NCBI GenBank assembly: GCA_963855995.1
Contig: OY979717.1
Span: forward strand, 35,412,997 to 35,476,996
DNA length: 64,000 nt
Direction of reading: 5' to 3'
From: Muricea muricata
Lineage: Eukaryota > Cnidaria > Anthozoa > Malacalcyonacea > Plexauridae
Shown here: positions 1 through 64,000 of the stretch, piece by piece
Numbering within the stretch: position 1 is the stretch's first letter
Layout of the letters: each line of letters starts with the position of its first letter
Notes under the pieces: model-generated
Database searches by the model: none
Told to the model about the DNA's origin: nothing
The model's input: the letters and a program-made list of their open reading frames with translations, nothing else
Program-made: the position numbers and the translations under genes

Positions 1-140
1 GAAAAACGTGCTTTAGGATAAAGACATAAAATTCTTGGCCTGCTTATCCTTTGAAACCGTTGGAAAAGTTGGCTTCTATCGACTCTCAGACACTAATGTA
101 TATGAGACACGCTGAGATTTTTTCCAATAAAAGCAGCCAT
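1..140 (+). repeat. Spacer tail of a unit cut by the window edge
   Basis: Matches the i-to-A spacer of the other units, including the TATA-like TATATGAGA and the T-run just before slot A. Confidence 0.9.
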
Positions 141-213
141 GTTTCTGTAGTGTAGTGGTTTTCACGTGTGCTTTACACGCGCAAGGTCCTCTGTTCGATC
201 CTGAGCAGAAACA
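141..213 (+). tRNA. tRNA-Val(TAC), A/H hybrid
   Basis: 73 nt. The 5' half (GTGGTTTTCACGTGTGCT) is slot A type. From the anticodon loop on it is slot H type (TTACACGCGC, CTGAGCAGAAACA, then the H terminator). Loop TTTACAC gives TAC. T-stem CTCTG/CTGAG has one T·T mismatch. The crossover lies inside the anticodon loop. Confidence 0.8.
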
Positions 214-454
214 TTCTAAACTTTTTAGCCTTCTTCCTATAATGTGGCGGTCATCAGGTGTACTTAATTCACGTAAGGGCTAAAGCCCGTTCCTGGGCAG
301 AAACAGTCTAATCTGAAAAACGTGCTTTAGGATAAAGACATAAAATTCGTGGCCTGCTTATTGTTTGAAACAGTTGGAAAAGTTGGCTTCTATCGACTCT
401 CAGACAATAATGTATATGAAACACGCTGAGATTTTTTCCACTAAAAGCATTCAT
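141..454 (+). repeat. Recombinant mini-unit (A/H hybrid + relic i)
   Basis: Only 314 bp. The front of slot A is fused to the back of slot H, so B, c, d, e and G are missing. Relic i lies at 233-305. Confidence 0.9.
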
Positions 455-527
455 GTTTCTGTAGTGTAGTGGTTATCACGTGTCCTTAACACGCACAAGG
501 TCCCCAGTTCAATACAGGGCAGAAACA
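455..527 (+). tRNA. tRNA-Val(AAC), A/G hybrid
   Basis: Slot A front and upstream flank with slot G tail (CAATACAGGG then CGAAAG and a T6 run). Loop TTAACAC. Anticodon stem TGTCC/GCACA has a C·C mismatch and T-stem CCCAG/CAGGG an A·A mismatch. Confidence 0.65.
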
Positions 528-762
528 ATCGAAAGTTTTTTCACTGCAAAGAAAAAAGATATTTTGAACTTTTGGACAAATACGTGGAAACAACAAGGCG
601 AGATAATTTCATAGAGTAGCGCCCGTACATAAAATAAAAATTGTGTCCAATTATTTTAGGGTTAAAAACAGTGTGTTTCCTAGCTTTTCTTTCTCCGTGT
701 ATATTTTTTCTTCTCATTTCTCACTACCATTCCTAGGAAATGTTGTGCAACAGATCAATCGC

Positions 763-835
763 GTTTCTGTAGTGTAGTGGTCATCACGTGCGCTTTACAC
801 GCGCAAGGTCCTCAGTTGGATCCTGAGCAGAAAAT
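763..835 (+). tRNA. tRNA-Val(TAC), slot H
   Basis: Loop TTTACAC. The B-box is damaged (GTTGGATCC instead of GTTCGATCC, invariant C56 to G) and the 3' end reads CAGAAAAT, so G1·A72 is mismatched and base 73 is T. Probably weak or dead. Confidence 0.5.
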
Positions 836-1076
836 TTCTAAACTTTTTAGACTTCTTTGTATAATGTGGCGGTCATCAGGTGTACTTAATTCGCGTAAGG
901 GCTAAAGCCCGTTCCTGGGCAGAAACAGTCTAATCTGAAAAACGTGTTTTAGGATAAAGAGATAAAATTCGTGGCCTGCTTATCCTTTGAAACCGTTGGA
1001 AAAGTTTGCTTCTATCGACTCTCAGACAATAACGTATATGAGATACGCTGAGATTTTTTCCAATAAAAGCAGCCAT

Positions 1077-1154
1077 GTTTCTGTAGTGTAGTGTAGTAGT
1101 TATCACGTGTGCTTAACACGCACAAGGTCCCCAGTTCGATCTTGGGCAGAAACA
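1077..1154 (+). tRNA. tRNA-Val(AAC), slot A, 5-nt D-arm insertion
   Basis: 78 nt instead of 73 because TAGTG is present three times in the D-arm region. Loop TTAACAC. T-arm reads CCCAG TTCGATC TTGGG (one G·T pair). T5 run 12 nt downstream. Confidence 0.75.
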
Positions 1155-1382
1155 ATGGGAAAATTTTTCACTGTAAAGAAAAAATATATTTTGATTTTTT
1201 GACAAATATCTCAAAACACTTAGGCGAGAATATTTCATACTCTAGCACGCGTACAAAAAAAATTGTGTTCAATTCTTTTAGAGTTTAAAACAGTGTGTTT
1301 CCTCACATTTCATTCTCTTTGTATTTTTTTCTACGCATTCTCACAAAAATTGTTCAGAATTTTTTTGGAACACATCAAGCGT

Positions 1383-1455
1383 GTTTCTGTAATGTAGTGG
1401 TCATCACGTGCGCCTCACACGCGCAAGGTCCTCAGTTCGATCCTGGGCAGAAACA
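1383..1455 (+). tRNA. tRNA-Val(CAC), slot B
   Basis: 73 nt. Acceptor GTTTCTG/CAGAAAC, anticodon stem TGCGC/GCGCA, loop CTCACAC with anticodon CAC at 34-36, T-stem CTCAG/CTGGG with one wobble pair, discriminator A. The A-box region reads TAATGTAGTGG, the B-box GTTCGATCC. It would read GTG codons. No T4 run follows within about 165 nt, unlike slots A, G and H. Confidence 0.88.
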
Positions 1456-2103
1456 TTCTAAACTAATAAATTTCCGTCTTTATTGTAGCGATCAACATGT
1501 GTACTTAATTCGTGTAAGAAGCGTAAAAATCGTGCTATTATCTCATTAAAAAGTATCTTTCAAACAATATTCATCTTAATAAAAATCTTCGCTTCGAGCA
1601 ACATGTTATTTGAGTCAATGGTTTTGCACTTACCCAGAAAGAAGCTTCAAAAATTTTTTGCTTCCTGAGATTTTGGAACTGTTAAAAAGTCCATGTTTCC
1701 ATAGTTTAGCGGTCATCAAAAGTGGTTAACAAAGAGAAGGACTCGAGTTTGATCCTTGGTAGAACCAGTCTAAATTGAAAAACTTTTTTCTTTAGTACAT
1801 TCATCATGTTCAGTTATGCTTTTAATTGGCCCATTTCTCCCAGCTCGATCCCGACAAAAAAGTTTAAGCTAAAAATTGTGCTTTCGATTTTTAAAACAGT
1901 ATGTTTAAAACAATGTTAATCTTACTGAATATTTTGGCTAAGACTAGGATGTTTTTCAAGTCAATGGTTTTGCACCTACGACGGCGCTATAAAATTCCTC
2001 GCATTCTTAATATTTGAAACATTTGGAAACGTTGGCTTGTATCGACTCAGAAACAATAATGTATATAAAAAACGCTGAGAATTTTTTCCATAAATGAAAC
2101 CAT

Positions 2104-2176
2104 GTTTCTATAGTGTAGTAGTTACCACGTGTGCTTAACACGCACAAGGTCCCCAGTTCAATACAGGGCAAAAACA
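2104..2176 (+). tRNA. tRNA-Val(AAC), slot G, ACAGGG lineage
   Basis: Loop TTAACAC, anticodon stem TGTGC/GCACA intact. The D-loop has AGTAG instead of AGTGG (one of the conserved GG pair lost), T-stem CCCAG/CAGGG has an A·A mismatch, and the acceptor 3' strand CAAAAAC mispairs at 5-68. T6 terminator follows. Confidence 0.6.
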
Positions 2177-2411
2177 ATCGAAAGTTTTTTCACTGCAAAG
2201 AAAAAAGATATTTTGAACTTTTTGACAAATACGTGGAAACAACAAGGCGAGATAATTTCATAGTGTAGCGCCCGTACATAAAATAAAAATTGTGCCCAAT
2301 TCTTTTAGGGTTAAAAACAGTGTGTTTCTTAGCTTTTCTTTCTGCGTGTCAATTTTTTCTTCTCATTAATCACTATCATTCCCAGGAAATGTTGTGCAAC
2401 AGTTCAATCGC

Positions 2412-2489
2412 AATTCTGTAGTGTAGTGTAGTGGTCATCACATGCGCTTCATACGCGCAAGGTTCTCAGTTCGATCCTGAGCAGAAACA
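2412..2489 (+). tRNA. tRNA-Val body with CAT anticodon, slot H
   Basis: 78 nt with an extra TAGTG in the D-arm. Loop TTCATAC gives anticodon CAT (Met) on a valine-type body, one transition (C36 to T) from the CAC loop TTCACAC of short-unit H genes. Acceptor starts AATTCTG, so pairs 1-72 and 2-71 are lost. May be a pseudogene. Confidence 0.5.
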
Positions 2490-2688
2490 TTCTAAACTTT
2501 TTAGCCTTCTTTGTATAATGTGGCGGTCATCAGGTGTACTTAATTCGCGTAAGGGCTAAAGCCCGTTCCTGGGCAGAAACAGTCTAATCTGAAAAACGTG
2601 CTTTAGGATAAAGACATAAAATTCGTGGCCTGCTTATCCTTTGAAACCGTTGGAAAAGTTGGCTTCTATCGACTCTCAGACAATAATG

Positions 2689-2694
2689 TATATG
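2689..2694 (+). promoter_or_regulatory. TATA-like box upstream of slot A
   Basis: TATATG at -42 to -37 from the tRNA start, at the same distance as the stronger box before slot G. Plausible TFIIIB/TBP contact; position and conservation are seen, function is inferred. Confidence 0.4.
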
Positions 2695-2730
2695 AGATAG
2701 GCTGAGATTTTTTCCAATAAAAGCAGCCAT

Positions 2731-2808
2731 GTTTCTGTAGTGTAGTGTAGTGGTTATCACGTGTGCTTAACACGCACAAGGTCCCCAGTTCGATCCTGGG
2801 CAGAAATA
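2731..2808 (+). tRNA. tRNA-Val(AAC), slot A, 5-nt D-arm insertion
   Basis: Decodes GTT/GTC (and GTA if A34 is edited to inosine). Acceptor GTTTCTG/CAGAAAT (G1·T72 wobble here), anticodon stem TGTGC/GCACA, loop TTAACAC, T-stem CCCAG/CTGGG, T-loop TTCGATC, discriminator A. A-box TAGTGTAGTGG and B-box GTTCGATCC fit the Pol III consensus. TAGTG is tripled, moving the acceptor strand 5 nt away from the A-box. No intron, no encoded CCA. Confidence 0.78.
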
Positions 2809-2817
2809 ATGGGAAAA

Positions 2818-2822
2818 TTTTT
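2818..2822 (+). terminator. Pol III terminator of slot A
   Basis: T5 run starting 10 nt after the tRNA 3' end. Confidence 0.7.
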
Positions 2823-3036
2823 CACTGTAAAGAAAAAATATATTTTGATTTTTTGACAAATATCTCAACACACTTAGGCGAGAGTATTTCATACTCTAGC
2901 ACGCGTACAAAAAAAATTGTGTTCAATTCTTTTAGAGTTTAAAACAGTGTGTTTCCTCACATTTCATTCTCTTTGTATTTTTTTCTACGCATTCTCACAA
3001 AAATTGTTCAGAATTTTTTTGGAACACATCAAGCGT

Positions 3037-3109
3037 GTTTCTGTAATGTAGTGGTCATCACGTGCGCCTCACACGCGCAAGGTCCTCAGTTCGATCCTGG
3101 GCAGAAACA
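3037..3109 (+). tRNA. tRNA-Val(CAC), slot B
   Basis: Loop CTCACAC; all stems pair. The first T4 run downstream is at 3276-3279, 167 nt away and beyond relic c. Confidence 0.88.
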
Positions 3110-3129
3110 TTCTAAACTAATAAATTTCC

Positions 3130-3199
3130 GTCTTTATTGTAGCGATCAACATGTGTACTTAATTCGTGTAAGAAGCGTAAAAATCGTGCTATTATCTCA
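3130..3199 (+). pseudogene. tRNA-Val relic, slot c
   Basis: Heavily decayed: GTAGCGATCAACATGTGTACTT still aligns with the D-arm and anticodon 5' side, but the T-arm is unrecognisable and no acceptor stem remains. It starts 20 nt after tRNA B. Confidence 0.6.
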
Positions 3200-3347
3200 T
3201 TAAAAAGTATCTTTCAAACAATATTCATCTTAATAAAAATCTTCGCTTCGAGCAACATGTTATTTGAGTCAATGGTTTTGCACTTACCCAGAAAGAAGCT
3301 TGAAAATTTTTTGCTTCCTGAGATTTTGGAACTGTTAAAAAGTCCAT

Positions 3348-3420: not shown

Positions 3421-3436
3421 GTCTAAATTGAAAAAC

Positions 3437-3442: not shown

Positions 3443-3453
3443 CTTTAGTACAT

Positions 3454-3829: not shown

Positions 3830-3838
3830 ATGGGAAAA

Positions 3839-7362: not shown

Positions 7363-7435
7363 AATTCTGTAGTGTAGTGGTCATCACATGCGCTTCATAC
7401 GCGCAAGGTTCTCAGTTCGATCCTGAGCAGAAACA
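7363..7435 (+). tRNA. tRNA-Val body with CAT anticodon, slot H
   Basis: 73 nt, loop TTCATAC. Acceptor AATTCTG loses pairs 1-72 and 2-71. Anticodon stem TGCGC/GCGCA and T-stem CTCAG/CTGAG intact. Confidence 0.5.
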
Positions 7436-7982: not shown

Positions 7983-8020
7983 GTTTCTGTAATGTAGTGG
8001 TTCGATCCTGGGCAGAAACA
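7983..8020 (+). pseudogene. tRNA-Val slot B with 35-bp internal deletion
   Basis: 38 nt left: GTTTCTGTAATGTAGTGG joined directly to TTCGATCCTGGGCAGAAACA. The D-arm 3' side, whole anticodon arm and T-stem 5' strand are gone. The same junction recurs at 15767, 22184, 23789, 27042, 30292 and 35801. Confidence 0.9.
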
Positions 8021-9663: not shown

Positions 9664-10310
9664 TTCTAAACTAATAAATTTCCGTCTTTATTGTAGCGAT
9701 CAACACGTGTACTTAATTCCTGTAAGAAGCCTAAAAATCGTGCTATTATCTCATTAAAAAGTATCTTTCAAACAATATTCATCTTAATAAAAATCTTCGC
9801 TTCGAGCAGCATGTTATTTGAGTCAATGGTTTTGCACTTACCCAGAAAGAAGCTTGAAAATTTTTTGCTTCCTGAGATTTTGGAACTGTTGAAAAGTCCA
9901 TGTTTCCATAGTGTAGCGGTCATCAAGTGTGGTTAACAAAGAGAAGGACTCGAGTTTGATCCTTGGCAGAAGCAGTCTAAATTGAAAAACTTTTTTCTTT
10001 AGTACATTCATCATGTTCAGTTACGCTTTTAATTGGCCCATTTCTCCCAGCTCGATCCCGACAAAAAAGTTTAAGCTAAAAATTGTGCTTTCGATTTTTA
10101 AAACAGTATGTTTAAAACAATGTTAATCTTACTGAATATTTTGGCTAAGACTAGGATGTTTTTCAAGTCAATGGTTTTGCACCTACGACGGCGCTATAAA
10201 ATTCCTCGCATTCTTAATATTTGAAACATTTGGAAACGTTGGCTTGTATCGACTCAGAAACAATAATGTATATAAAAAACGCTGAGAATTTTTTCCATAA
10301 ATGAAGCCAT

Positions 10311-10383
10311 GTTTCTGTAGTGTAGTAGTCACCACGTGTGCTTAACACGCACAAGGTCCCCAGTTCAATCCTGGGCATAAAAA
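10311..10383 (+). tRNA. tRNA-Val(AAC), slot G
   Basis: Loop TTAACAC; 3' end CATAAAAA gives mismatches at 5-68 and 1-72. Confidence 0.55.
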
Positions 10384-10617
10384 AGGGAAAATTATCCACT
10401 GTAAAGAAAAAATATATTTTGAATCTTTTGACATTTACGTGGAAAAAACAAGGCGAGAATATTTCAAAGTGTAGCGCCCGTACATAAAATAAAAATTGTG
10501 TCCAATTATTTTAGGGTTAAAAACAGTGTGTTTCCTAGCTTTTCTTTCTCCGTGTATATTTTTTCTTCTCATTTCTCACTACCATTCCTAGGAAATGTTG
10601 TGCAACAGATCAATCGC

Positions 10618-10690
10618 GTTTCTGTAGTGTAGTGGTCATCACGTGCGCTTTACACGCGCAAGGTCCTCTGTTCGATCCTGAGCAGAAACA
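10618..10690 (+). tRNA. tRNA-Val(TAC), slot H
   Basis: Loop TTTACAC; T-stem CTCTG/CTGAG one mismatch; otherwise paired. Confidence 0.8.
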
Positions 10691-10931
10691 TTCTAAACTT
10701 TTTAGCCTTCTTCCTATAATGTGGCGGTCATCAGGTGTACTTAATTCACGTAAGGGCTAAAGCCCGTTCCTGGGCAGAAACAGTCTAATCTGAAAAACGT
10801 GCTTTAGGATGCAGACATAAAATTCGTGGCCTGCTTATTGTTTGAAACAGTTGGAAAAGTTGGCTTCTATCGACTCTCAGACAATAATGTATATGAAACA
10901 CGCTGAGACTTTTTCCACCAAAAGCAGCCAT

Positions 10932-11004
10932 GTTTCTGTAGTGTGGTGGTTATCACGTGTGCTTAACACGCACAAGGTCCCCAGTTCAATACAGGGCAGA
11001 AACA
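10932..11004 (+). tRNA. tRNA-Val(AAC), A/G hybrid
   Basis: Loop TTAACAC; acceptor fully paired; T-stem A·A mismatch. D-arm reads TAGTGTGGTGG, so the A-box A is lost. Confidence 0.68.
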
Positions 11005-11239
11005 ATCGAAAGTTTTTTCACTGCAAAGAAAAAAGATATTTTGAACTTTTGGACAAATACGTGGAAACAACAAGGCGAGATAATTTCATAGAGTAGCGCC
11101 CGTACATAAAATAAAAATTGTGTCCAATTCTTTTAGGGTTAAAAACAGTGTGTTTCTTAGCTTTTCTTTCTCCGTGTCAATTTTTTCTTCTCATTAATCA
11201 CTATCATTCCTAGGAAATGTTGTGCAACAGTTCAATCGC

Positions 11240-11312
11240 AATTCTGTAGTGTTGTGGTCATCACATGCGCTTCACACGCGCAAGGTTCTCAGTTCGATCC
11301 TGAGCAGAAACA
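11240..11312 (+). tRNA. tRNA-Val(CAC), slot H of short unit
   Basis: Loop TTCACAC. Acceptor AATTCTG loses two top pairs. D-arm TAGTGTTGTGG breaks the A-box A. Anticodon and T stems intact. Confidence 0.5.
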
Positions 11313-11553
11313 TTCTAAACTTTTTAGCCTTCTTTCTATAATGTGGCGGTCATCAGGTGTACTTAATTCGCGTAAGGGCTAAAGCCCGTTCCTGGGCAGA
11401 AACAGTCTAGTCTGAAAAACGTGCTTTAGGATAAAGACATAAAATTCGTGGCCTGCTTATCCTTGGAAACCGTTGGAAAAGTTGGCTTCTATCGACTCTC
11501 AGACAATAATGTATATGAGACACGCTGAGATTTTTTCCAATAAAAGCGGCCAT

Positions 11554-11626
11554 GTTTCTGTAGTGTAGTGGTTATCACGTGTGCTTAACACGCACAAGGT
11601 CCCCAGTTCGATCCTGGGCAGAAACA
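11554..11626 (+). tRNA. tRNA-Val(AAC), slot A, 73 nt
   Basis: Cleanest slot A form: all stems pair, D-arm TAGTGTAGTGG, loop TTAACAC, T5 run downstream. Confidence 0.93.
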
Positions 11627-11854
11627 ATGGGAAAATTTTTCACTGTAAAGAAAAAATGTATTTTGATTTTTTGACAAATATCTCAAAACACTTAGGCGAG
11701 AATATTTCATACTCTAGCACGCGTACAGAAAAAATTGTGTTCAATTCTTTTCGAGTTTAAAACAGTGTGTTGCCTCACATTTCATTCGTTTTGTATTTTT
11801 TTCAAGGCATTCTCACAAAAATTGTTCAGAATTTTTTTGGAACTAATCAAGCGT

Positions 11855-11927
11855 GTTTCTGTAATGTAGTGGTCATCACGTGCGCCTCACACGCGCAAGG
11901 TCCTCAGTTCGATCCTTGGCAGAAACA
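11855..11927 (+). tRNA. tRNA-Val(CAC), slot B
   Basis: Loop CTCACAC; T-stem CTCAG/CTTGG with a C·T mismatch. Confidence 0.8.
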
Positions 11928-12574
11928 TTCTAAACTAATAAATTTCCGTCTTTATTGTAGCGATCAACATGTGTACTTAATTCGTGTAAGAAGCGTAAAA
12001 ATCGTGCTATTATCTCATTAAAAAGTATCTTTCAAACAATATTCATCTTAATAAAAATCTTCGCTTCGAGCAACATAATATTTGAGTCAATGGTTTTGCA
12101 CTTACCCAGAAAGAAGCTTGAAAATTTTTTGCTTCCTGAGATTTTGGAACTGTTAAAGAGTCCATGTTTCCATAGTGTAGCGGTCATCAAGTGTGGTTAA
12201 CAAAGAGAAGGACTCGAGTTTGATCCTTGGCAGAAGCAGTCTAAATTGAAAAACTTTTTTCTTTAGTACATTCATCATGTTCAGTTATGCTTTTAATTGG
12301 CCCATTTCTCCCAGCTCGATCCCGACAAAAAAGTTTAAGCTAAAAATTGTGCTTTCGATTTTTAAAACAGTATGTTTAAAACAATGTTAATCTTACTGAA
12401 TATTTTGGCTAAGACTAGGATGTTTTTCAAGTCAATGGTTTTGCACCTACGACGGCGCTATAAAATTCCTCGCATTCTTAATATTTGAAACACTTGGAAA
12501 CGTTAGCTTGTATCGACTCAGAAACAATAATGTATATAAAAAACGTTGAGAATTTTTTCCATAAATGAAGCCAT

Positions 12575-41396: not shown

Positions 41397-42039
41397 TTCT
41401 AAACTAATAAATTTCCGTCTTTATTGTAGCGATCAATATGTGTACTTAATTCGTGTAAGAAGCGTAAAAATCGTGCTATTATCTCATTAAAAAGTATCTT
41501 TCAAACAATATTCATCTTAATAAAAATCTTCGCTTCGAGCAGCATGTTATTTGAGTCAATGGTTTTGCACTTACCCAGAAGCCCTAAAATTTTTTGCTTC
41601 CTGAGATTTTGGAACTGTTAAAAAGTCCATGTTTCCATAGTGTAGCGGTCATCAAGTGTGGTTAACAAAGAGAAGGACTCGAGTTTGATCCTTGGCAGAA
41701 GCGGTCTAAATTGAAAAGCTTTTTGCTTTAGTCTATTCCTCATCTTCAGTTATGCTTTTAACTGGCCCATTTCTCCCAGCTCGATCCCAACAAAAAAGTG
41801 TAAGCTAAAAATTGTGCTTTCGATTCCTAAAAAAGTATGTTTAAAACAATGTTAATCTTACTGAATATTTTGGCTAAGACTAGGATGTTTTTCAAGTCAA
41901 TGGTTTTAAACCTACGACGGCGCTTTAAAAATCCTCGCATTCTTAGTGTTTGAAACATTTGGAAACGTTAGCTTGTATCGACTCAGAAACAATAATGTAT
42001 ATAAAAAACGCTGAGAATTTTTTCCATAAATGAAGCCAT

Positions 42040-42112
42040 GTTTCTGTAGTGTAGTAGTTATCACGTGTGCTTAACACGCACAAGGTCCCCAGTTCAATCC
42101 TGGGCAGAAACA
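42040..42112 (+). tRNA. tRNA-Val(AAC), slot G
   Basis: Clean slot G form; loop TTAACAC. Confidence 0.85.
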
Positions 42113-42347
42113 ATGGGAAAATTATCCACTGTAAAGAAAAAATATATTTTGAATCTTTTGACAAATACCTGGAAAAAACAAGGCGAGAATATTTCAAAGT
42201 GTAGCGCTCGTACATAAAATAAAAATTGTGTCCAACTATTTTAGGGTTAAAAACAGTGTGTTTCCTAGCTTTTCTTTCTCCGTGTATATTTTTTCTTCTC
42301 ATTTCTCACTACCATTCCTAGGAAATGTTGTGCAACAGATCAATCGC

Positions 42348-42420
42348 GTGTCTGTAGTGTAGTGGCCATCACGTGCGCCTTACACGCGCAAGGTCCTCAG
42401 TTCGATCCTGAGCAGAAAAT
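42348..42420 (+). tRNA. tRNA-Val(TAC), slot H
   Basis: Loop CTTACAC (C32); GTGTCTG acceptor; D-loop GTGGCCATC; CAGAAAAT end. Confidence 0.6.
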
Positions 42421-42661
42421 TTCTAAACTTTTTAGCCTTCTTTGTATAATGTGGCGGTCATCAGGTGTACTTAATTCGCGTAAGGGCTAAAGCCCGTTCC
42501 TGGGCAGAAACAGTCTAATCTGAAAAACATGCTTTAGGATAAAGACATAAAATACGTGGCCTGCTTATCCTTTGAAACCGTTCGAAAAGTTTGCTTCTAT
42601 CGACTCTCAGACAATAATGTATATGAGATACGCTGAGATTTTTTCCAATAAAAGCAGCCAT

Positions 42662-42744
42662 GTTTCTGTAGTGTAGTGTAGTGTAGTGGTTATCACGTGT
42701 GCTTAACACGCACAAGGTCCCCAGTTCGATCCTGGGCAGAAACA
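42662..42744 (+). tRNA. tRNA-Val(AAC), slot A, 10-nt D-arm insertion
   Basis: 83 nt: TAGTG four times. Loop TTAACAC; other stems pair. Confidence 0.68.
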
Positions 42745-42972
42745 ATGGGAAAATTTTTCACTGTAAAGAAAAAATATATTTTGATTTTTTGACAAATATC
42801 TCAAAACACTTAGGCGAGAGTATTTCATACTCTAGCACGCGTACAAAAAAAATTGTGTTCAATTCTTTTAGAGTTTAAAACAGTGTGTTGCCTCACATTT
42901 CATTCTCTTGGTATTTTTTTCTACGCATTCTCACAAAAATTGTTCAGAATTTTTTTGGAACAGATCAAGCGT

Positions 42973-43045
42973 GTTTCTGTAATGTAGTGGTCATCACGTG
43001 CGCCTCACACGCGCAAGGTCCTCAGTTCGATCCTGGGCAGAAACA
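42973..43045 (+). tRNA. tRNA-Val(CAC), slot B
   Basis: Loop CTCACAC; stems intact. Confidence 0.88.
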
Positions 43046-43692
43046 TTCTAAACTAATAAATTTCCGTCTTTATTGTAGCGATCAACATGTGTACTTAATT
43101 CGTGTAAGAAGCGTAAAAATCGTGCTATTATCTCATTAAAAAGTATCTTTCAAACAATATTCATCTTAATAAAAATCTTCGCTTCGAGCAACATGTTATT
43201 TGAGTCAATGGTTTTGCACTTACCCAGAAAGAAGCTTGAAAATTTTTTGCTTCCTGAGATTTTGGAATTGTTAAAAAGTCCATGTTTCCATAGTGTAGCG
43301 GTCATCAAGTGTGGTTAACAAAGAGAAGGACTCGAGTTTGATCCTTGGCAGAAGCAGTCTAAATTGAAAAACTTTTTTCTTTAGTACATTCATCATGTTC
43401 AGTTATGCTTTTAATTGGCCCAATTCTCCCAGCTCGATCCCGACAAAAAAGTTTAAGCTAAAAATTGTGCTTTCGATTTTTAAAACAGTATGTTTAAAAC
43501 AATGTTAATCTTACTGAATATTTTGGCTAAGACTAGGATGTTTTTCAAGTCAATGGTTTTGCACCTACGACGGCGCTATAAAATTCCTCGCATTCTTAAT
43601 ATTTGAAACATTTGGAAACGTTAGCTTGTATCGACTCAGAAACAATAATGTATATAAAAAACGTTGAGAATTTTTTCCATAAATGAAGCCAT

Positions 43693-43765
43693 GTTTCTGT
43701 AGTGTAGTAGTCACCACGTGTGCTTAACACGCACAAGGTCCCCAGTTCAATCCTGGGCATAAAAA
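43693..43765 (+). tRNA. tRNA-Val(AAC), slot G
   Basis: Loop TTAACAC; CATAAAAA end. Confidence 0.55.
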
Positions 43766-44000
43766 AAGGGAAAATTTTCCACTGTAAAGAAAAAATATAT
43801 TTTGAATCTTTTGACAAATACGTGGAAAAAACAAGGCGACAACATTTCAAAGTGTAGCGCCCGTACATAAAATAAAAATTGTGTCCAATTATTTTAGGGT
43901 TAAAAACAGTGTGTTTCCTAGCTTTTCTTTCTCCGTGTATATTTTTTCTTCTCATTTCTCACTAGCATTCCTAGAAAATTTTGTGTAACAGATCAATCGC

Positions 44001-44073
44001 GTTTCTGTAGTGTAGTGGTCATCACGTGCGCTTTACACGCGCAAGGTCCTCAGTTCGATCCTGAGCAGAAACA
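44001..44073 (+). tRNA. tRNA-Val(TAC), slot H
   Basis: Cleanest slot H form: GTTTCTG/CAGAAAC, TGCGC/GCGCA, CTCAG/CTGAG all pair, loop TTTACAC, A73. Confidence 0.92.
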
Positions 44074-44314
44074 TTCTAAACTTTTTAGCCTTGTTTGTAT
44101 AATGTGGCGGTCATCAGGTGTACTTAATTCGCGTAAGGGCTAAAGCCCGTTCCTGGGCAGAAACAGTCTAATCTGAAAAACGTGCTTTAGGATAAAGACA
44201 TAAAATTCGTGGCCCGGTTATCCTTTGAAACCGTTGGAAAAGTTTGCTTCTATCGACTCTCAGACAATAATGTATATGAGATACGCTGAGATTTTTTCCA
44301 ATGAAAGCAGCCAT

Positions 44315-44392
44315 GTTTCTGTAGTGTAGTGTAGTGGTTATCACGTGTGCTTAACACGCACAAGGTCCCCAGTTCGATCCTGGGCAGAAACA
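44315..44392 (+). tRNA. tRNA-Val(AAC), slot A, 5-nt D-arm insertion
   Basis: Loop TTAACAC; stems pair. Confidence 0.78.
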
Positions 44393-44620
44393 ATAGGAAA
44401 ATTTTTCACTGTAAAGAAAAAATATATTTTGATTTTTTGACAAATATCTCAAAACACTTAGGTGAGAGTATTTCATACTCTAAAACGCGTACAAAAAAAA
44501 TTGTGTTCAATTCTTTTAGAGTTTAAAACAGTGTGTTGCCTCACATTTCATTCTCTTGGTATTTTTTTCTACGCATTCTCACAAAAATTGTTCAGAATTT
44601 TTTTGGAACAGATCAAGCGT

Positions 44621-44693
44621 GTTTCTGTAATGTAGTGGTCATCACGTGCGCCTCACACGCGCAAGGTCCTCAGTTCGATCCTGGGCAGAAACA
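44621..44693 (+). tRNA. tRNA-Val(CAC), slot B
   Basis: Loop CTCACAC; stems intact. Confidence 0.88.
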
Positions 44694-45340
44694 TTCTAAA
44701 GTAATAAATTTCCGTCTTTATTGTAGCGATCAACATGTGTACTTAATTCGTGTAAGAAGCGTAAAAATCGTGCTATTATCTCATTAAAAAGTATCTTTCA
44801 AACAATATTCATCTTAATAAAAATCTTCGCTTCGAGCAACATGTTATTTGAGTCAATGGTTTTGCACTTACCCAGAAAGAAGCTTGAAAATTTTTTGCTT
44901 CCTGAGATTTTGGAATTGTTAAAAAGTCCATGTTTCCATAGTGTAGCGGTCATCAAGTGTGGTTAACAAAGAGAAGGACTCGAGTTTGATCCTTGGCAGA
45001 AGCAGTCTAAATTGAAAAACTTTTTTCTTTAGTACATTCATTATGTTCAGTTATGCTTTTAATTGGCCCATTTCTCCCAGCTCGATCCCGACAAAAAAGT
45101 TTAAGCTAAAAATTGTGCTTTCGATTTTTAAAACAGTATGTTTAAAACAATGTTAATCTTACTGAATATTTTGGCTAAGACTAGGATGTTTTTCAAGTCA
45201 ATGGTTTTGCACCTACGACGGCGCTATAAAATTCCTCGCATTCTTAATATTTGAAACATTTGGAAACGTTTTCTTGTATCGACTCAGAAACAATAATGTA
45301 TATAAAAAACGCTGAGAATTTTTTCCATAAATGAAACCAT

Positions 45341-49562: not shown

Positions 49563-49635
49563 GTTTCTGTAATGTAGTGGTCATCACGTGCGCCTCACAC
49601 GCGCAAGGTCCTCAGTTCGATCCTGGGCAGAAACA
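49563..49635 (+). tRNA. tRNA-Val(CAC), slot B
   Basis: Duplicate of 42973. Confidence 0.88.
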
Positions 49636-50282: not shown

Positions 50283-50355
50283 GTTTCTGTAGTGTAGTAG
50301 TCACCACGTGTGCTTAACACGCACAAGGTCCCCAGTTCAATCCTGGGCATAAAAA
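50283..50355 (+). tRNA. tRNA-Val(AAC), slot G
   Basis: Duplicate of 43693. Confidence 0.55.
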
Positions 50356-50590
50356 AAGGGAAAATTTTCCACTGTAAAGAAAAAATATATTTTGAATCTT
50401 TTGACAAATACGTGGAAAAAACAAGGCGACAACATTTCAAAGTGTAGCGCCCGTACATAAAATAAAAATTGTGTCCAATTATTTTAGGGTTAAAAACAGT
50501 GTGTTTCCTAGCTTTTCTTTCTCCGTGTATATTTTTTCTTCTCATTTCTCACTAGCATTCCTAGAAAATTTTGTGTAACAGATCAATCGC

Positions 50591-50663
50591 GTTTCTGTAG
50601 TGTAGTGGTCATCACGTGCGCTTTACACGCGCAAGGTCCTCAGTTCGATCCTGAGCAGAAACA
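50591..50663 (+). tRNA. tRNA-Val(TAC), slot H
   Basis: Duplicate of 44001; clean form. Confidence 0.92.
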
Positions 50664-50904
50664 TTCTAAACTTTTTAGCCTTGTTTGTATAATGTGGCGG
50701 TCATCAGGTGTACTTAATTCGCGTAAGGGCTAAAGCCCGTTCCTGGGCAGAAACAGTCTAATCTGAAAAACGTGCTTTAGGATAAAGACATAAAATTCGT
50801 GGCCCGGTTATCCTTTGAAACCGTTGGAAAAGTTTGCTTCTATCGACTCTCAGACAATAATGTATATGAGATACGCTGAGATTTTTTCCAATGAAAGCAG
50901 CCAT

Positions 50905-50982
50905 GTTTCTGTAGTGTAGTGTAGTGGTTATCACGTGTGCTTAACACGCACAAGGTCCCCAGTTCGATCCTGGGCAGAAACA
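50905..50982 (+). tRNA. tRNA-Val(AAC), slot A, 5-nt D-arm insertion
   Basis: Duplicate of 44315. Confidence 0.78.
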
Positions 50983-51210
50983 ATAGGAAAATTTTTCACT
51001 GTAAAGAAAAAATATATTTTGATTTTTTGACAAATATCTCAAAACACTTAGGTGAGAGTATTTCATACTCTAAAACGCGTACAAAAAAAATTGTGTTCAA
51101 TTCTTTTAGAGTTTAAAACAGTGTGTTGCCTCACATTTCATTCTCTTGGTATTTTTTTCTACGCATTCTCACAAAAATTGTTCAGAATTTTTTTGGAACA
51201 GATCAAGCGT

Positions 51211-51283
51211 GTTTCTGTAATGTAGTGGTCATCACGTGCGCCTCACACGCGCAAGGTCCTCAGTTCGATCCTGGGCAGAAACA
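51211..51283 (+). tRNA. tRNA-Val(CAC), slot B
   Basis: Duplicate of 44621. Confidence 0.88.
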
Positions 51284-51930
51284 TTCTAAAGTAATAAATT
51301 TCCGTCTTTATTGTAGCGATCAACATGTGTACTTAATTCGTGTAAGAAGCGTAAAAATCGTGCTATTATCTCATTAAAAAGTATCTTTCAAACAATATTC
51401 ATCTTAATAAAAATCTTCGCTTCGAGCAACATGTTATTTGAGTCAATGGTTTTGCACTTACCCAGAAAGAAGCTTGAAAATTTTTTGCTTCCTGAGATTT
51501 TGGAATTGTTAAAAAGTCCATGTTTCCATAGTGTAGCGGTCATCAAGTGTGGTTAACAAAGAGAAGGACTCGAGTTTGATCCTTGGCAGAAGCAGTCTAA
51601 ATTGAAAAACTTTTTTCTTTAGTACATTCATTATGTTCAGTTATGCTTTTAATTGGCCCATTTCTCCCAGCTCGATCCCGACAAAAAAGTTTAAGCTAAA
51701 AATTGTGCTTTCGATTTTTAAAACAGTATGTTTAAAACAATGTTAATCTTACTGAATATTTTGGCTAAGACTAGGATGTTTTTCAAGTCAATGGTTTTGC
51801 ACCTACGACGGCGCTATAAAATTCCTCGCATTCTTAATATTTGAAACATTTGGAAACGTTTTCTTGTATCGACTCAGAAACAATAATGTATATAAAAAAC
51901 GCTGAGAATTTTTTCCATAAATGAAACCAT

Positions 51931-52003
51931 GTTTCTGTAGTGTAGTAGTTACCACGTGTGCTTTACACGCACAAGGTCCCCAGTTCAATCCTGGGCATAA
52001 AAA
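51931..52003 (+). tRNA. tRNA-Val(TAC), slot G with switched anticodon
   Basis: Duplicate of 45341; loop TTTACAC. Confidence 0.55.
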
Positions 52004-52238
52004 AAGGGAAAATTTTCCACTGTAAAGAAAAAATATATTTTGAATCTTTTGACAAATACGTGGAAAAAACAAGGCGACAATATTTCAAAGTGTAGCGCCC
52101 GTACATAAAATAAAAATTGTGTCCAATTATTTTAGGGTTAAAAACAGTGTGTTTCCCAGCTTTTCTTTCTCCGTGTATATTTTTTCTTCTCATTTCTCAC
52201 TAGCATTCCTAGAAAATTTTGTTTAACAGATCAATCGC

Positions 52239-52311
52239 GTTTCGGTAGTGTAGTGGTCATCACGTGCGCTTTACACGCGCAAGGTCCTCAGTTCGATCCT
52301 GAGCAGAAAAT
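52239..52311 (+). tRNA. tRNA-Val(TAC), slot H
   Basis: Duplicate of 45649. Confidence 0.58.
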
Positions 52312-52552
52312 TTCTAAACTTTTTAGCCTTCTTTGTATAATGTGGCGGTCATCAGGTGTACTTAATTCGCGTAAGGGCTAAAGCCCGTTCCTGGGCAGAA
52401 ACAGTCTAATCTGAAAAACGTGCTTTAGGATAAAGACATAAAATTCGTGGCCTGCTTATCCTTTGAAACCGTTGGAAAAGTTTGCTTCTATCGACTCTCA
52501 GACAATAATGTATATGACATACGCTGAGATTTTTTCCAATAAAAGCAGCCAT

Positions 52553-52630
52553 GTTTCTGTAGTGTAGTGTAGTGGTTATCACGTGTGCTTAACACGCACA
52601 AGGTCCCCAGTTCGATCCTGGGCAGAAATA
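52553..52630 (+). tRNA. tRNA-Val(AAC), slot A, 5-nt D-arm insertion
   Basis: Loop TTAACAC; G1·T72 wobble. Confidence 0.75.
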
Positions 52631-52858
52631 ATGGGAAAATTTTTCACTGTAAAGAAAAAATATATTTTGATTTTTTGACAAATATCTCAAAACACTTAGG
52701 CGAGAATATTTCATACTCTAGCACGCGTACAAAAAAAATTGTGTTCAATTCTTTTAGAGTTTAAAACAGTGTGTTGCCTCACATTTCATTCTCTTTGTAT
52801 TTTTTTCTACGCATTCTCACAAAAATTGTTCAGAATTTTTTTGGAACACATCAAGCGT

Positions 52859-52931
52859 GTTTCTGTAATGTAGTGGTCATCACGTGCGCCTCACACGCGC
52901 AAGGTCCTCAGTTCGATCCTGGACAGAAACA
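52859..52931 (+). tRNA. tRNA-Val(CAC), slot B
   Basis: Loop CTCACAC; T-stem CTCAG/CTGGA one mismatch. Confidence 0.8.
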
Positions 52932-53581
52932 TTCTAAACTAATAAATTTCCGTCTTTATTGTAGCGATCAATATGTGTACTTAATTCGTGTAAGAAGCGT
53001 AAAAATCGTGCTATTATCTCATTAAAAAGTATCTTTCAAACAATATTCATCTTAATAAAAATCTTCGCTTCGAGCAACATGTTATTTAAGTCAATGGTTT
53101 TGCACTTACCCAGAAAGAAGCTTGAAAATTTTTTGCTTCCTGAGATTTTGGAACTGTTAAAAAGTCCATGTTTCCATAGTGTAGCGGTCATCAAGTGTGG
53201 TTAACAAAGAGAAGGACTCGAGTTTGATCCTTGGCAGAAGCGGTCTAAATTGAAAAGCTTTTATTTGCTTTAGTCTATTCCTCATCTTCAGTTATGCTTT
53301 TAACTGGCCCATTTCTCCCAGCTCGATGCCAACAAAAAAGTGTAAGCTAAAAATTGTGCTTTCGATTCCTAAAAAAGTATGTTTAAAACAATGTTAATCT
53401 TACTGAATATTTTGGCTAAGACTAGGATGTTTTTCAAGTCAATGGTTTTAAACCTACGACGGCGCTTTAAAAATCCTCGCATTCTTAGTGTTTGAAACAT
53501 TTGGAAACGTTAGCTTGTATCGACTCAGAAACAATAATGTATATAAAAAACGCTGAGAATTTTTTCCATAAATGAAGCCAT

Positions 53582-56961: not shown

Positions 56962-57458
56962 AAGGGAAAATTTTCCACTGTAAAGAAAAAATATATTAGC
57001 AAGTTTATATGTGTAACAGCACTATAAACTTAAGTTAATGAAACAAGCGTTGGGCCAGAAGTAAAATTGTGCAAAGTCTTGCAGTGTGCAAAGGTCAATT
57101 TGGGAAGCGCATGTTCATACACGTGCTAGGCTCAATGCCAACTTTAACAACAAACCATTGTCTACATCTCTCCCTATGTGTCTGGGCAGGTGGACCAATC
57201 AGGTTTAACCATGTCGTCTAAATAGTTTCCTGCCTGGATCAAAAAGTATCATTCTGTCACATGCAAGCAAAAGCGTCTGACCTCCATGACAATATTTTGA
57301 AATTCCCACCTATCCCACCCTTCAATGATTTTGCACCATTTTTAGCATTAGTTTAATAGAATTGGATATAAACAGGTAAATAGTCTATGTCGCACTCAGT
57401 CAGTGTCATTTGCATGGAATATTTCTCATGTAAGGTCAAAATTAATTATTATGGGATA

Positions 57459-57559
57459 GTTAATATGGTTAAGTGTAATAGTAATAGATTAGTAAAATGA
57501 AATAATTATAGTTAATATGTTTAATTGTAATATTAATAGATTAGTAAAGGAAATAATTA
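57459..57559. repeat. 50-bp AT-rich tandem duplication
   Basis: 57459-57508 and 57511-57559 both start GTTAATATG and share TTAATAG/TAATAG…ATTAGTAAA…AAATAATTA, with several substitutions. Confidence 0.85.
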
Positions 57560-57568
57560 AAAAATAAT

Positions 57569-57589
57569 AAAAAAAAAAAAAAAAAAAAA
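57569..57589. repeat. A21 homopolymer
   Basis: Uninterrupted A-run after an A/T-rich lead-in. Could be a retroposed tail or simple repeat. Confidence 0.9.
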
Positions 57590-57597
57590 TTGTCTTT

Positions 57598-58037
57598 GGT
57601 TGATGGGGATGGAGTGCTCCCAAAGGTCACCCTCAACCCCATAGACTCACATAAAACAATGTAATATATATATTTTATTGTAATTAATTATGGGGATTCA
57701 CTTCCCCTTGCATGTTTAAAGTAAACAATGCCCATCACGGGGATCTACTACCCCTTGGACATTAAAGTAAACAATGCCCATCACGGGGATCTACTACCCC
57801 TTGGACATTTAAGTTATCGATGACCATCACGGGGATCTACTACCCCTTGGACATTGAGAGTGCCCATCTTGGGGAGCTACTACCCCTTGGGCAAAGTCCA
57901 ACACGGGGGAGCCATTACCCCCTGAGGACACAGCTATATCATAATCATAATGCATAATCATAATTGTGAGTCTGTGGGGGGCAATTTGACCACAGTTTAT
58001 AATTATATAAGAATTGGAGCATTTCTCCCCATCAACC
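57598..58037. repeat. 12-bp inverted repeat flanking the minisatellite
   Basis: GGTTGATGGGGA at 57598-57609 and its reverse complement TCCCCATCAACC at 58026-58037. Confidence 0.75.
57690..57921. repeat. Minisatellite, six GGGG-N8-CCCC motifs
   Basis: Motifs at 57692-57707, 57739-57754, 57785-57800, 57831-57846, 57871-57886 and 57906-57921. The central copies have a 46-bp period with ATCTACTA between the G4 and C4 arms, so each could form a 4-bp-stem hairpin. A 79-codon reverse reading frame overlaps it but looks incidental. Confidence 0.85.
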
Positions 58038-58313
58038 CTTCTCCCACAACATTGTGTGTGTGTCATAGTGGTTTCTTAATTGTCTCTATATTTTCCTGAC
58101 GATTGGTGCATTAATTGAATCTTTTGACAAATACGTGGAAAAAACAAGGCGACAATATTTCAAAGTGTAGCGCCCGTACATAAAATAAAAATTGTGTCCA
58201 ATTATTTTAGGGTTAAAAACAGTGTGTTTCCTAGCTTTTCTTTCTCCGTGTATATTTTTTCTTCTCATTTCTCACTAGCATTCCTAGAAAATTTTGTTTA
58301 ACAGATCAATCGC

Positions 58314-61600: not shown

Positions 61601-61673
61601 AATTCTGTAGTGTAGTGGTCATCACATGCGCTTCATACGCGCAAGATTCTCAGTTCGATCCTGAGCAGAAACA
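61601..61673 (+). tRNA. tRNA-Val body with CAT anticodon, slot H
   Basis: Loop TTCATAC; AATTCTG acceptor. Confidence 0.5.
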
Positions 61674-61914: not shown

Positions 61915-61987
61915 GTTGCTGTAGTGTAGTGGTTATCACGTGTGCTTAACACGCACAAGGTCCCCAGTTCGATCCTGGGCAGAAACA
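61915..61987 (+). tRNA. tRNA-Val(AAC), slot A, 73 nt
   Basis: GTTGCTG acceptor (4-69 mismatch); loop TTAACAC. Confidence 0.8.
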
Positions 61988-62215
61988 ATGGGAAAATTTT
62001 TCACTGTAAAGAAAAAATATATTTTGATTTTTTGACAAATATCTCAAAACACTTAGGCGAGAATATTTCATACTCTAGCACGCGTACAAAAAAAATTGTG
62101 TTCAATTCTTTTAGAGTTTAAAACAGTGTGTTGCCTCACATTTCATTCTCTTTGTATTTTTTTCTACGCATTCTCACAAAAATTGTTCAGAATTTTTTTG
62201 GAACACATCAAGCGT

Positions 62216-62288
62216 GTTTCTGTAATGTAGTGGTCATCACGTGCGCCTCACACGCGCAAGGTCCTCAGTTCGATCCTGGGCAGAAACA
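62216..62288 (+). tRNA. tRNA-Val(CAC), slot B
   Basis: Loop CTCACAC; stems intact. Confidence 0.88.
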
Positions 62289-62931
62289 TTCTAAACTAAT
62301 AAATTTCCGTCTTTATTGTAGCGATCAACATGTGTACTTAATTCGTGTAAGAAGCCTAAAAATCGTGCTATTATCTCATTAAAAAGTATCTTTCAAACAA
62401 TATTCATCTTAATAAAAATCTTCGCTTCGAGCAGCATGTTATTTGAGTCAATGGTTTTGCACTTACCCAGAAGCTCTAAAATTTTTTGCTTGCTGACATT
62501 TTGGAACAGTTGAAAAGTCCATGTTTCCGTAGTGTAGCGGTCATCAAGTGTTGTTCACGAACAGAAGAACTCGAGTTGGTTCCTTGGCAGAAGCGGTCTA
62601 AATTGAAAAGCTTTTTGCTTCAGTCTATTCCTCATCTTCAGTTATGCTTTTAATTGGCCCATTTCTCCCAGCTCGATCCCGACAAAAAAGTCTAAGCTAA
62701 AAATTGTGCTTTCGATTCCTAAAAAAGTATGTTTAAAACAATGTTAATCTTACTGAATATTTTGGCTAAGACTAGGATGTTTTTCAAGTCAATGGTTTTA
62801 AACCTACGACGGCGCTTTAAAAATCCTCGCATTCTTAGTGTTTGAAACATTTGGAAACGTTAGCTTGTATCGACTCAGAAACAATAATGTATATAAAAAA
62901 CGCTGAGAATTTTTTCCATAAATGAAGCCAT

Positions 62932-63004
62932 GTTTCTGTAGTGTAGTAGTTATCACGTGTGCTTAACACGCACAAGGTCCCCAGTTCAATCCTGGGCAGA
63001 AACA
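62932..63004 (+). tRNA. tRNA-Val(AAC), slot G
   Basis: Clean slot G form; loop TTAACAC. Confidence 0.85.
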
Positions 63005-63239
63005 ATGGGAAAATTATCCACTGTAAAGAAAAAATATATTTTGAATCTTTTGACAAATACGTGGAAAAAACAAGGCGAGAATATTTCAAAGTGTAGCGCT
63101 GGTACATAAAATAAAAATTGTGTCCAACTATTTTAGGGTTAAAAACAGTGTGTTGCCTAGCTTTTCTTTCTCCGTGTATATTTTTTCTTCTCATTTCTCA
63201 CTACCATTCCTAGGAAATGTTGTGCATCAGATCAATCGC

Positions 63240-63312
63240 GTGTCTGTAGTGTAGTGGTCATCACGTGCGCTTTACACGCGCAAGGTCCTCAGTTCGATCC
63301 TGAGCAGAAAAT
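63240..63312 (+). tRNA. tRNA-Val(TAC), slot H
   Basis: GTGTCTG acceptor; T-stem CTCAG/CTGAG; CAGAAAAT end; loop TTTACAC. Confidence 0.6.
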
Positions 63313-63553
63313 TTCTAAACTTTTTAGCCTTCTTCCTATAATGTGGCGGTCATCAGGTGTACTTAATTCACGTAAGGGCTAAAGCCCGTTCCTGGGCAGA
63401 AACAGTCTAATCTGAAAAACGTGCTTTAGGATGAAGACATAAAATTCGTGGCCTTCTTATTGTTTGAAACAGTTGGAAAAGTTGGCTTCTATCGACTCTC
63501 AGACAATAATGTATATGAAACACGCTGAGATTTTTTCCACTAAAAGCAGCCAT

Positions 63554-63626
63554 GTTTCTGTAGTGTAGTGGTTATCACGTGTGCTTAACACGTACAAGGT
63601 CCCCAGTTCAATACAGGGCAAAAACA
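63554..63626 (+). tRNA. tRNA-Val(AAC), A/G hybrid
   Basis: Stem TGTGC/GTACA has one mismatch; CAAAAAC end; loop TTAACAC. Confidence 0.6.
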
Positions 63627-63861
63627 ATCGAAAGTTTTTTCACTGCAAAGAAAAAAGATATTTTGAACTTTTGAACAAATACGTGGAAACAACAAGGCGA
63701 GATAATTTCATAGAGTAGCGCCCGTACATAAAATAAAAATTGTGTCCAATTCTTTTAGGGTTAAAAACAGTGTGTTTCTTAGCTTTTCTTTCTCCGTGTC
63801 AATTTTTTCTTCTCATTAATCACTATCATTCCTAGGAAATGTTGTGCAACAGTTCAATCGC

Positions 63862-63934
63862 AATTCTGTAGTGTTGTGGTCATCACATGCGCTTCACACG
63901 CGCAAGGTTCTCAGTTCGATCCTGAGCAGAAACA
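63862..63934 (+). tRNA. tRNA-Val(CAC), slot H of short unit
   Basis: Loop TTCACAC; AATTCTG acceptor. Confidence 0.5.
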
Positions 63935-64000
63935 TTCTAAACTTTTTAGCCTTCTTTCTATAATGTGGCGGTCATCAGGTGTACTTAATTCGCGTAAGGG

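What the first reader, a model, noticed from the sequence alone, without database searches (positions are those of the whole stretch)
1..64000. A >60-kb tandem array devoted to one amino acid: about 149 tRNA-Val genes with three valine anticodons
All tRNA-like genes share one valine-type body and one orientation. Each long unit carries AAC, CAC and usually TAC, a complete valine decoding set packaged in a repeat. Known tandem tRNA arrays (Xenopus tDNA, zebrafish clusters, Entamoeba) mix different amino acids in a unit as far as I recall. The array reaches both window edges, so its real size is unknown.
Basis: partly seen in the sequence, partly recalled or inferred. Interest (0 to 1): 0.85.

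Follow-up and report, generated by a model that had tools for sequence, protein, structure and literature searches.

The report
Valine tRNA gene satellite array
This stretch of eukaryotic DNA is a long head-to-tail repeat array of valine tRNA genes; it is real and unusually large, but most copies carry flaws and long single-amino-acid tRNA arrays are already known, so it is a striking variant of a known kind.

Summary
A profile from three copies finds 149 tRNA-Val-like genes above 60 bits, all + strand, reaching both window edges; ten shuffled windows stay below 8 bits. Anticodons: AAC 76, CAC 34, TAC 32, and 7 CAT (Met). Four gene slots plus a relic slot form a ~1.65-kb higher-order unit; 35 complete units lie in the window.

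Only 24 of 149 have all 20 stem pairs and no indel; 16 of these (11 AAC, 5 TAC) also keep the conserved tRNA residues; no CAC copy is stem-perfect. So a complete valine set per unit is doubtful. Between slots, tRNA bodies changed about four times slower than spacers; within slots they are no more conserved.

Known tandem arrays do not always mix amino acids: Arabidopsis tRNA-Pro, maize tRNA-Ile and a 92-kb maize tRNA satellite are in print (passages). Best reading: a valine tRNA satellite with a small sound minority, perhaps an egg-stage supply array as in zebrafish; a silent satellite fits almost as well. The host is unknown.

The parts
1..64000 (+). Tandem tRNA-Val array, 149 gene-like copies, open at both window edges; interrupted once by an insert
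1695..3347 (+). Example of one higher-order unit (relic slot, then a1 AAC, b1 CAT, a2 AAC with 5-nt duplication, b2 CAC), 1653 bp
9902..12165 (+). Example of a long unit (2264 bp) with an extra a2x-b1 pair: AAC TAC AAC CAC AAC CAC
44001..44073 (+). Sound tRNA-Val(TAC), slot b1: all 20 pairs, conserved residues kept, T5 run starting 9 nt downstream; Rfam tRNA 64.6 bits (highest in window, shared with two copies)
11554..11626 (+). Sound tRNA-Val(AAC), slot a2: all 20 pairs, conserved residues kept, T5 run starting 10 nt downstream; Rfam 63.1 bits
32614..32686 (+). Stem-perfect tRNA-Val(AAC) of slot a1 that has A in place of the first G of the D-loop GG (34 of 36 a1 copies do)
1383..1455 (+). tRNA-Val(CAC), slot b2: A10-C25 mismatch in the D stem, no T4 within 120 nt; Rfam 53 bits when rescanned alone
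7363..7435 (+). CAT (Met) anticodon on the valine body, slot b1; first two acceptor pairs broken
2731..2808 (+). AAC copy with a 5-nt duplication between acceptor and D stems; one of 18 such copies (four of them with two duplications)
1695..1767 (+). Relic slot R3 (GTTTCC...), decayed tRNA; 36 copies in window
857..927 (+). tRNA relic about 94 nt after the start of a b1 gene
7983..8020 (+). CAC slot with about 35 nt missing from the tRNA body; one of 7 places with the same deletion junction
41631..44931 (+). Two units 100% identical in aligned bases to 48221-51521 (offset 6590 bp): recent block duplication, or assembly duplication
56998..58114 (.). Single-copy insert of about 1.1 kb in an a1 spacer, no target-site duplication seen by eye, CpG-depleted (composition measured on 57011-58115); not part of the array

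Best explanation
A nuclear, multi-step tandem amplification of tRNA-Val genes: a tRNA-gene satellite with higher-order repeat structure. Two gene types (alpha with AAC; beta with TAC or CAC) form a 622-bp pair; pairs plus a relic form the 1.65-kb unit; unequal exchange spread the unit, with a block of four units (6.59 kb) among the youngest steps. Each sound copy carries its own Pol III promoter (A and B boxes) and a T-run terminator, so the sound minority (AAC of slot a2 and TAC of slot b1) can be transcribed one by one and supply valine tRNA, most likely when the egg or early embryo needs bulk translation; damaged copies ride along. Shown here: array, slots, unit structure, sound and damaged counts, slower evolution of tRNA bodies between slots. 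Inferred: the order of duplication steps, transcription, charging, egg-stage use.
For: 149 same-strand copies against none in ten shuffles. Ordered slots and unit lengths. Between slots, consensus tRNAs differ at 4/73 sites against 51/239 (a1-a2, Fisher p 7e-4) and 56/229 (b1-b2, p 1e-4) in spacers; alpha and beta spacers are within 0.03 of shuffled background while their tRNAs are 85-92% identical. Two stem pairs change on both sides (29-41 and 50-64, the latter with U-G intermediates): 55 double-changed cells against 19.6 +/- 9.0 in shuffles, 0/500; covariation score 0.103 against 0.068, 0/500. T4+ within 25 nt after 34/34 a2, 41/42 b1 and 22/36 a1 genes, within 60 nt for 36/36 a1. 16 copies are stem-perfect with the conserved residues kept. 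Units 93-100% identical, mean 96%, n = 27. [quoted passage not shown] No CpG decay in the array (o/e 0.92-1.15 in 55 tiles; CpG transition variants 16 on 95 sites against 64 on 360 other C/G sites, p 0.88; between paralogous spacers 2 of 23 CpG positions became TG/CA) although the insert has 12 CpG where 38.4 are expected: this fits little germline methylation of the array.
Against: Within each slot the tRNA body is as variable as the spacer (one-sided Fisher p 0.21-0.95 in four slots), so present selection on single copies is not visible. 125 of 149 copies have a broken pair or an indel; 34 of 36 a1 copies lack the first G of the D-loop GG and 15 of 42 b1 copies lack A73, so only 16 of 149 look fully sound. 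Two of the five covariation measures do not exceed shuffles (pairs with a double change 2 against 2.9; further pair types 11 against 12.7), and relatedness inflates the others. Zebrafish tRNA genes in large clusters are nearly fully CpG methylated in early embryos (PMC11574265, passage), unlike what the CpG record suggests here. Gene conversion between slots, or separate founders for alpha and beta, could mimic part of the between-slot conservation.
Confidence: 0.5

Rival explanations
1. A non-functional satellite: tRNA-Val genes were amplified by unequal crossing-over, and the tRNA-like bodies are fossils of the founder genes; the cell's valine tRNA comes from genes elsewhere and the array is silent.
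For: No excess conservation of tRNA bodies within slots; 133 of 149 copies have a stem, indel or conserved-residue defect; damaged forms spread as readily as sound ones (18 copies with a 5-nt duplication, 7 with one deletion junction, 7 with a CAT anticodon, 34 of 36 a1 without the D-loop GG). [quoted passage not shown]
Against: 16 fully sound copies remain in slots a2 and b1; between-slot rate ratios of 0.22-0.26 and paired stem changes show selection at an earlier stage; no CpG decay as expected of an array long methylated in the germline.
Confidence: 0.4
2. A chromatin boundary or Pol III factor-binding array: the useful part is factor binding at the A and B boxes, not tRNA production, as proposed with CTCF for the human 1q23.3 tRNA tandem repeat.
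For: Box stretches are fairly uniform within slots, also in copies with broken acceptor stems (A box TAGTGTAGTGGT in 31/42 b1; B box AGTTCGATCCT in 27/42 b1). Human precedent (PMC4041453, abstract and outline).
Against: B box changed to AGTTCAATACA in 9 of 36 a1 and 7 of 7 a2x copies, A box changed in 28 of 28 b2 copies; paired changes in anticodon and T stems point to selection on the RNA fold. CTCF-like sites were not searched for.
Confidence: 0.06
3. Assembly artefact: a short array expanded or rearranged by the assembler.
For: Two pairs of units are 100% identical at 6590-bp offset; the array runs off both edges.
Against: Units differ by up to 7%, mean identity 96% (n = 27); nine anticodon compositions among 35 units; the same duplications and deletions in non-adjacent units; a single-copy insert; no N in the window.
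Confidence: 0.04

Closest known systems
Maize tRNA satellite array (tRNASAT_ZM), 91.95 kb on chr4L (PMC10335936, passages seen)
   Same: Tens of kilobases of satellite named after a tRNA
   Different: Isotype and unit not stated in the passages seen; sequence not compared
Single-isotype tandem arrays: 27 tRNA-Pro genes in Arabidopsis, 28 tRNA-Ile in maize (PMC12652284, introduction passage); Arabidopsis tRNA-Cys cluster of ~420-bp units (PMC10701932, passages)
   Same: Tandem genes of one amino acid; for Cys also a short unit
   Different: Far fewer genes; here three valine anticodons and a higher-order unit
Zebrafish repetitive tRNA clusters (chr 4: 5227 genes; PMC11574265 and PMC11417395, passages)
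   Same: Huge repetitive tRNA gene regions, there linked to maternal tRNA
   Different: Adjacent pairs in zebrafish are mostly heterogeneous (PMC2888827, passage); clusters methylated in embryos
[quoted passage not shown]
   Same: Tandem tRNA genes
   Different: Unit mixes several amino acids (recalled, from no call); regulation untested here
Entamoeba tRNA arrays (PMC2652664, passages and part of a table; abstract start)
   Same: Tandem units with tRNA genes; concerted evolution proposed; Val-TAC lies in a unit written [V5] in one species column
   Different: Short tandem repeats between genes there; here Tandem Repeats Finder's four rows (period up to 500) all lie in the insert
Pike 5S rDNA with higher-order organisation (PMC5437419, abstract and passages)
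   Same: Pol III gene array with mixed unit types and blocks
   Different: 5S rRNA, no significant pseudogenisation, heavily CpG methylated

Membership tests
Tandem tRNA gene array | Many tRNA genes head to tail in repeating units | tested here: met
   149 of 149 on +; 35 complete units
Tandem tRNA gene array | Copies are intact, folding tRNAs | tested here: inconclusive
   24 of 149 with 20/20 pairs (G-U allowed) and no indel; 16 of 149 also with conserved residues; 66 of 149 with at most one mismatch
Tandem tRNA gene array | Pol III promoter boxes and terminator | tested here: inconclusive
   T4+ within 25 nt: a2 34/34, b1 41/42, a2x 7/7, a1 22/36, b2 0/28; boxes changed in b2 and part of a1 and a2x
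Tandem tRNA gene array | Expressed, charged tRNA | not testable with these tools
   no RNA data
Satellite DNA with higher-order repeats | Diverged monomers inside a unit, near-identical units | tested here: met
   slot spacers 67-81% identical (a1-a2, b1-b2) or at background (alpha-beta); 27 standard units 93-100%, mean 96%
Satellite DNA with higher-order repeats | Long array, here more than 60 kb | tested here: met
   window start to window end apart from one insert
Oocyte-type (maternal) tRNA array | Expression in ovary or egg | not testable with these tools
   no RNA data; lack of CpG decay is only indirect
tRNA-derived SINE | tRNA head with unrelated body and tail | tested here: not met
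   full-length tRNA bodies in ordered tandem slots
tRNA-derived SINE | Dispersed copies with target-site duplications | not testable with these tools
   no genome held
Complete valine decoding set (AAC, TAC, CAC) | At least one sound gene of each anticodon | tested here: inconclusive
   sound by stems and residues: AAC 11, TAC 5, CAC 0; 15 CAC copies of slot b2 have one mismatch only

The most novel reading that the evidence does not exclude
The array is a germline-hypomethylated, one-amino-acid tRNA satellite that works as an egg-stage valine tRNA bank and as a nursery of new anticodons: one repeated body carries AAC, TAC, CAC and even CAT, with stem changes that go with the slot, all spread as a higher-order unit.
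Probability: 0.14. Interest if true: 0.65.

Novelty: new variant of a known kind. Interest (0 to 1): 0.45.

Why it matters
If the sound copies are used, this would be a clear case of dosage for one amino acid by satellite-like amplification, and a natural experiment on how anticodons switch inside one tRNA body (AAC, TAC, CAC, CAT) while stems co-adapt. If not, it shows that tRNA genes can seed a higher-order satellite in which a tRNA finder reports over a hundred genes although few look sound: a warning for tRNA gene counts used as a proxy for tRNA supply.

Tried and rejected
Rejected: tRNA-derived SINE (tandem, full-length bodies). Rejected: a working set of Met tRNAs; all 7 CAT copies have at least two acceptor mismatches in my register; in the copy at 2417 part of this comes from a 5-nt duplication that shifts the register. 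ARAGORN's three tRNA-Leu and one tRNA-Stop calls are misreadings: these copies read AAC (Leu) and TAC (Stop) in register with the other copies.

Led nowhere: exact scans for tRNA and spacer stretches in viral contigs (three patterns) and genome contigs (one pattern) found 0 matches; these collections hold viruses and prokaryotes, so the absence says little. The host organism could not be named.

Weak points of method: stem counts use my own alignment to one reference, G-U allowed; six copies with the 5-nt duplication were aligned in a shifted register and counted as acceptor mismatches. The structure-pair test used 69 distinct sequences standing for 136 copies; 13 copies with indels in my alignment were left out, and three of the 69 rows are such shifted copies. 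Relatedness of copies inflates that test. tRNAscan-SE was not available. The between-slot Fisher tests rest on consensus sequences and ungapped columns. The list of conserved tRNA residues is recalled. The CpG contrast rests on one 1.1-kb insert, and array spacers are GpC-rich (o/e 1.55), so relative to GpC their CpG is somewhat low.
Full report
OBSERVATION. A nucleotide profile built from one AAC, one TAC and one CAC copy of the window finds 149 + strand hits of 60 bits or more, 79 of 20-60 bits and 86 weaker. Ten order-1 Markov shuffles give at best 7.9 bits. ARAGORN reports 136 genes, Rfam 71 at the gathering score and 95 at E<=1. None of the 34 CAC copies is among the 95; the one rescanned in a short stretch gives 53 bits, so whole-window Rfam counts are too low. 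By anticodon, read in one register, the 149 are AAC 76, CAC 34, TAC 32 and CAT 7. The array runs off both window edges. No whole genome is held for it; that the gene body looks like a metazoan tRNA-Val is recalled, not tested.

ANATOMY. Flank clustering puts the copies into slots: a1 (36 copies; AAC 34, TAC 2), b1 (42; TAC 29, CAT 7, CAC 6), a2 (34 AAC) with a sister a2x (7 AAC), b2 (28 CAC), and two odd junction copies. A fifth slot holds a decayed tRNA (36 copies). Further relics lie about 94 nt after the starts of b1 and b2 genes. Between successive fifth-slot relics there are 35 complete units. The commonest order, a1 AAC, b1 TAC, a2 AAC, b2 CAC, occurs in 18 of 35, one of which holds the 1.1-kb insert; 5 of 35 have an extra a2x-b1 pair (four with b2, one without). 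Seven CAC slots share one internal deletion junction; 18 of 149 copies carry a 5-nt duplication between acceptor and D stems, four of them twice. The 27 units of 1605-1656 bp are 93-100% identical in aligned bases, mean 96%; two pairs of units are identical at an offset of 6590 bp.

SOUNDNESS OF THE GENES. With a 20-pair tRNA structure, G-U allowed, 24 of 149 copies have every pair and no indel (19 AAC, 5 TAC), 66 have at most one mismatch (32 AAC, 18 CAC, 16 TAC) and 116 at most two. A check of 15 conserved residues (list recalled) cuts the 24 to 16: 11 AAC of slot a2 and 5 TAC of slot b1, eight distinct sequences. The loss is in slot a1, where 34 of 36 copies have A for the first G of the D-loop GG; in b1, 15 of 42 lack A73. 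None of the 34 CAC copies is stem-perfect; the 28 of slot b2 all read TAATGTAGTGG in the A-box region, giving an A10-C25 mismatch, and 26 of 28 have no T4 within 60 nt. Other slots mostly have a T run close by: within 25 nt 34/34 a2, 41/42 b1, 7/7 a2x, 22/36 a1; within 60 nt 36/36 a1. All 7 CAT copies have at least two acceptor mismatches in my register.

SELECTION. Between slots, consensus tRNA bodies differ at 4 of 73 sites in both comparisons (a1-a2, b1-b2), while spacers differ at 51 of 239 and 56 of 229; rate ratios 0.26 and 0.22, Fisher p 7e-4 and 1e-4; a1-a2x is weaker (0.43, p 0.033). Alpha and beta spacers are within 0.03 of shuffled background while their tRNAs are 85-92% identical. 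On 69 distinct sequences two stem pairs change on both sides (29-41 and 50-64, the latter with U-G intermediates); double-changed cells 55 against 19.6 +/- 9.0, covariation score 0.103 against 0.068 and cells paired 91.4% against 89.9%, each with 0 of 500 shuffles as high; but the number of pairs with such a change (2 against 2.9) and of further pair types (11 against 12.7) do not exceed shuffles, one slid control has more such pairs (4, though only 9 cells), and relatedness inflates cell counts. Within slots there is no excess conservation: variable columns in tRNA against spacer a1 21/73 v 76/240, b1 24/73 v 58/240, a2 12/73 v 52/240, b2 8/73 v 36/240; one-sided p 0.21-0.95. So selection acted while the slots formed and is not visible among the recent copies.

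CpG RECORD. The array is not CpG-depleted (o/e 0.92-1.15, mean 1.01, in 55 tiles; spacers alone 1.14, though GpC o/e is 1.55 there). CpG transition variants are no commoner than at other C/G sites (16 on 95 sites v 64 on 360; p 0.88). Between paralogous spacers 2 of 23 CpG positions became TG/CA, against 4 of 26 matching changes at GpC. The insert in the same DNA has 12 CpG against 38.4 expected (p 7e-7). I infer, with one insert as the only comparison, that the array has been little methylated in the germline.

MECHANISM. I favour a tRNA-Val satellite with a sound minority that supplies valine tRNA, most likely maternally. In zebrafish, isodecoders present in eggs and early embryos come from highly repetitive regions and those that rise later from scattered genes (PMC11417395, passages); Arabidopsis reactivates a silenced tRNA-Ser/Tyr array in root-tip cells (PMC12308677, passages). 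The main rival is a silent satellite, which the within-slot result and the defect counts fit as well. Transcription is not shown here.

COMPARISON. Single-isotype tandem arrays are known: 27 tRNA-Pro in Arabidopsis and 28 tRNA-Ile in maize (PMC12652284, passages), tRNA-Cys clusters (PMC10701932, passages), homogeneous pairs in several eukaryotes (PMC2888827, passages), and a 92-kb maize tRNA satellite (PMC10335936, passages). Neighbouring tRNA genes for one amino acid with different anticodons, Val included, occur in plants. What I did not meet in nine searches is a one-isotype array of this size with several anticodons in a higher-order unit; that is a limited search. I therefore call it a new variant of a known kind.

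Noticed in passing
56998-58114: Single-copy insert of about 1.1 kb splitting an a1 spacer, with no target-site duplication or loss seen by eye, an A-rich run at 57551-57590 and four 46-bp repeats (74-100% alike) at 57716-57893; strongly CpG-depleted. Probably a mobile element; family not identified.
   Followed up: partly
2417-2489, 7363-7435, 21569-21641, 26427-26499, 29677-29749, 35187-35259, 61601-61673: Seven copies with a Met anticodon (CAT) on the valine body, all in slot b1 and with damaged acceptor stems; by eye they resemble the b1 CAC copies.
   Followed up: partly
39985-46574 and 46575-53169: Two adjacent four-unit blocks, unit by unit 98.9-100% identical at an offset of 6590 bp: a third level of repeat or an assembly duplication.
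   Followed up: partly
857-927 (after b1) and 1477-1518 (after b2), and matching places in other units: Extra decayed tRNA pieces about 94 nt after the starts of beta genes, pointing to a still older duplication step.
   Followed up: partly
array spacers, whole window: CpG is near expectation in the array although the insert in the same DNA is depleted; cause unproven.
   Followed up: partly
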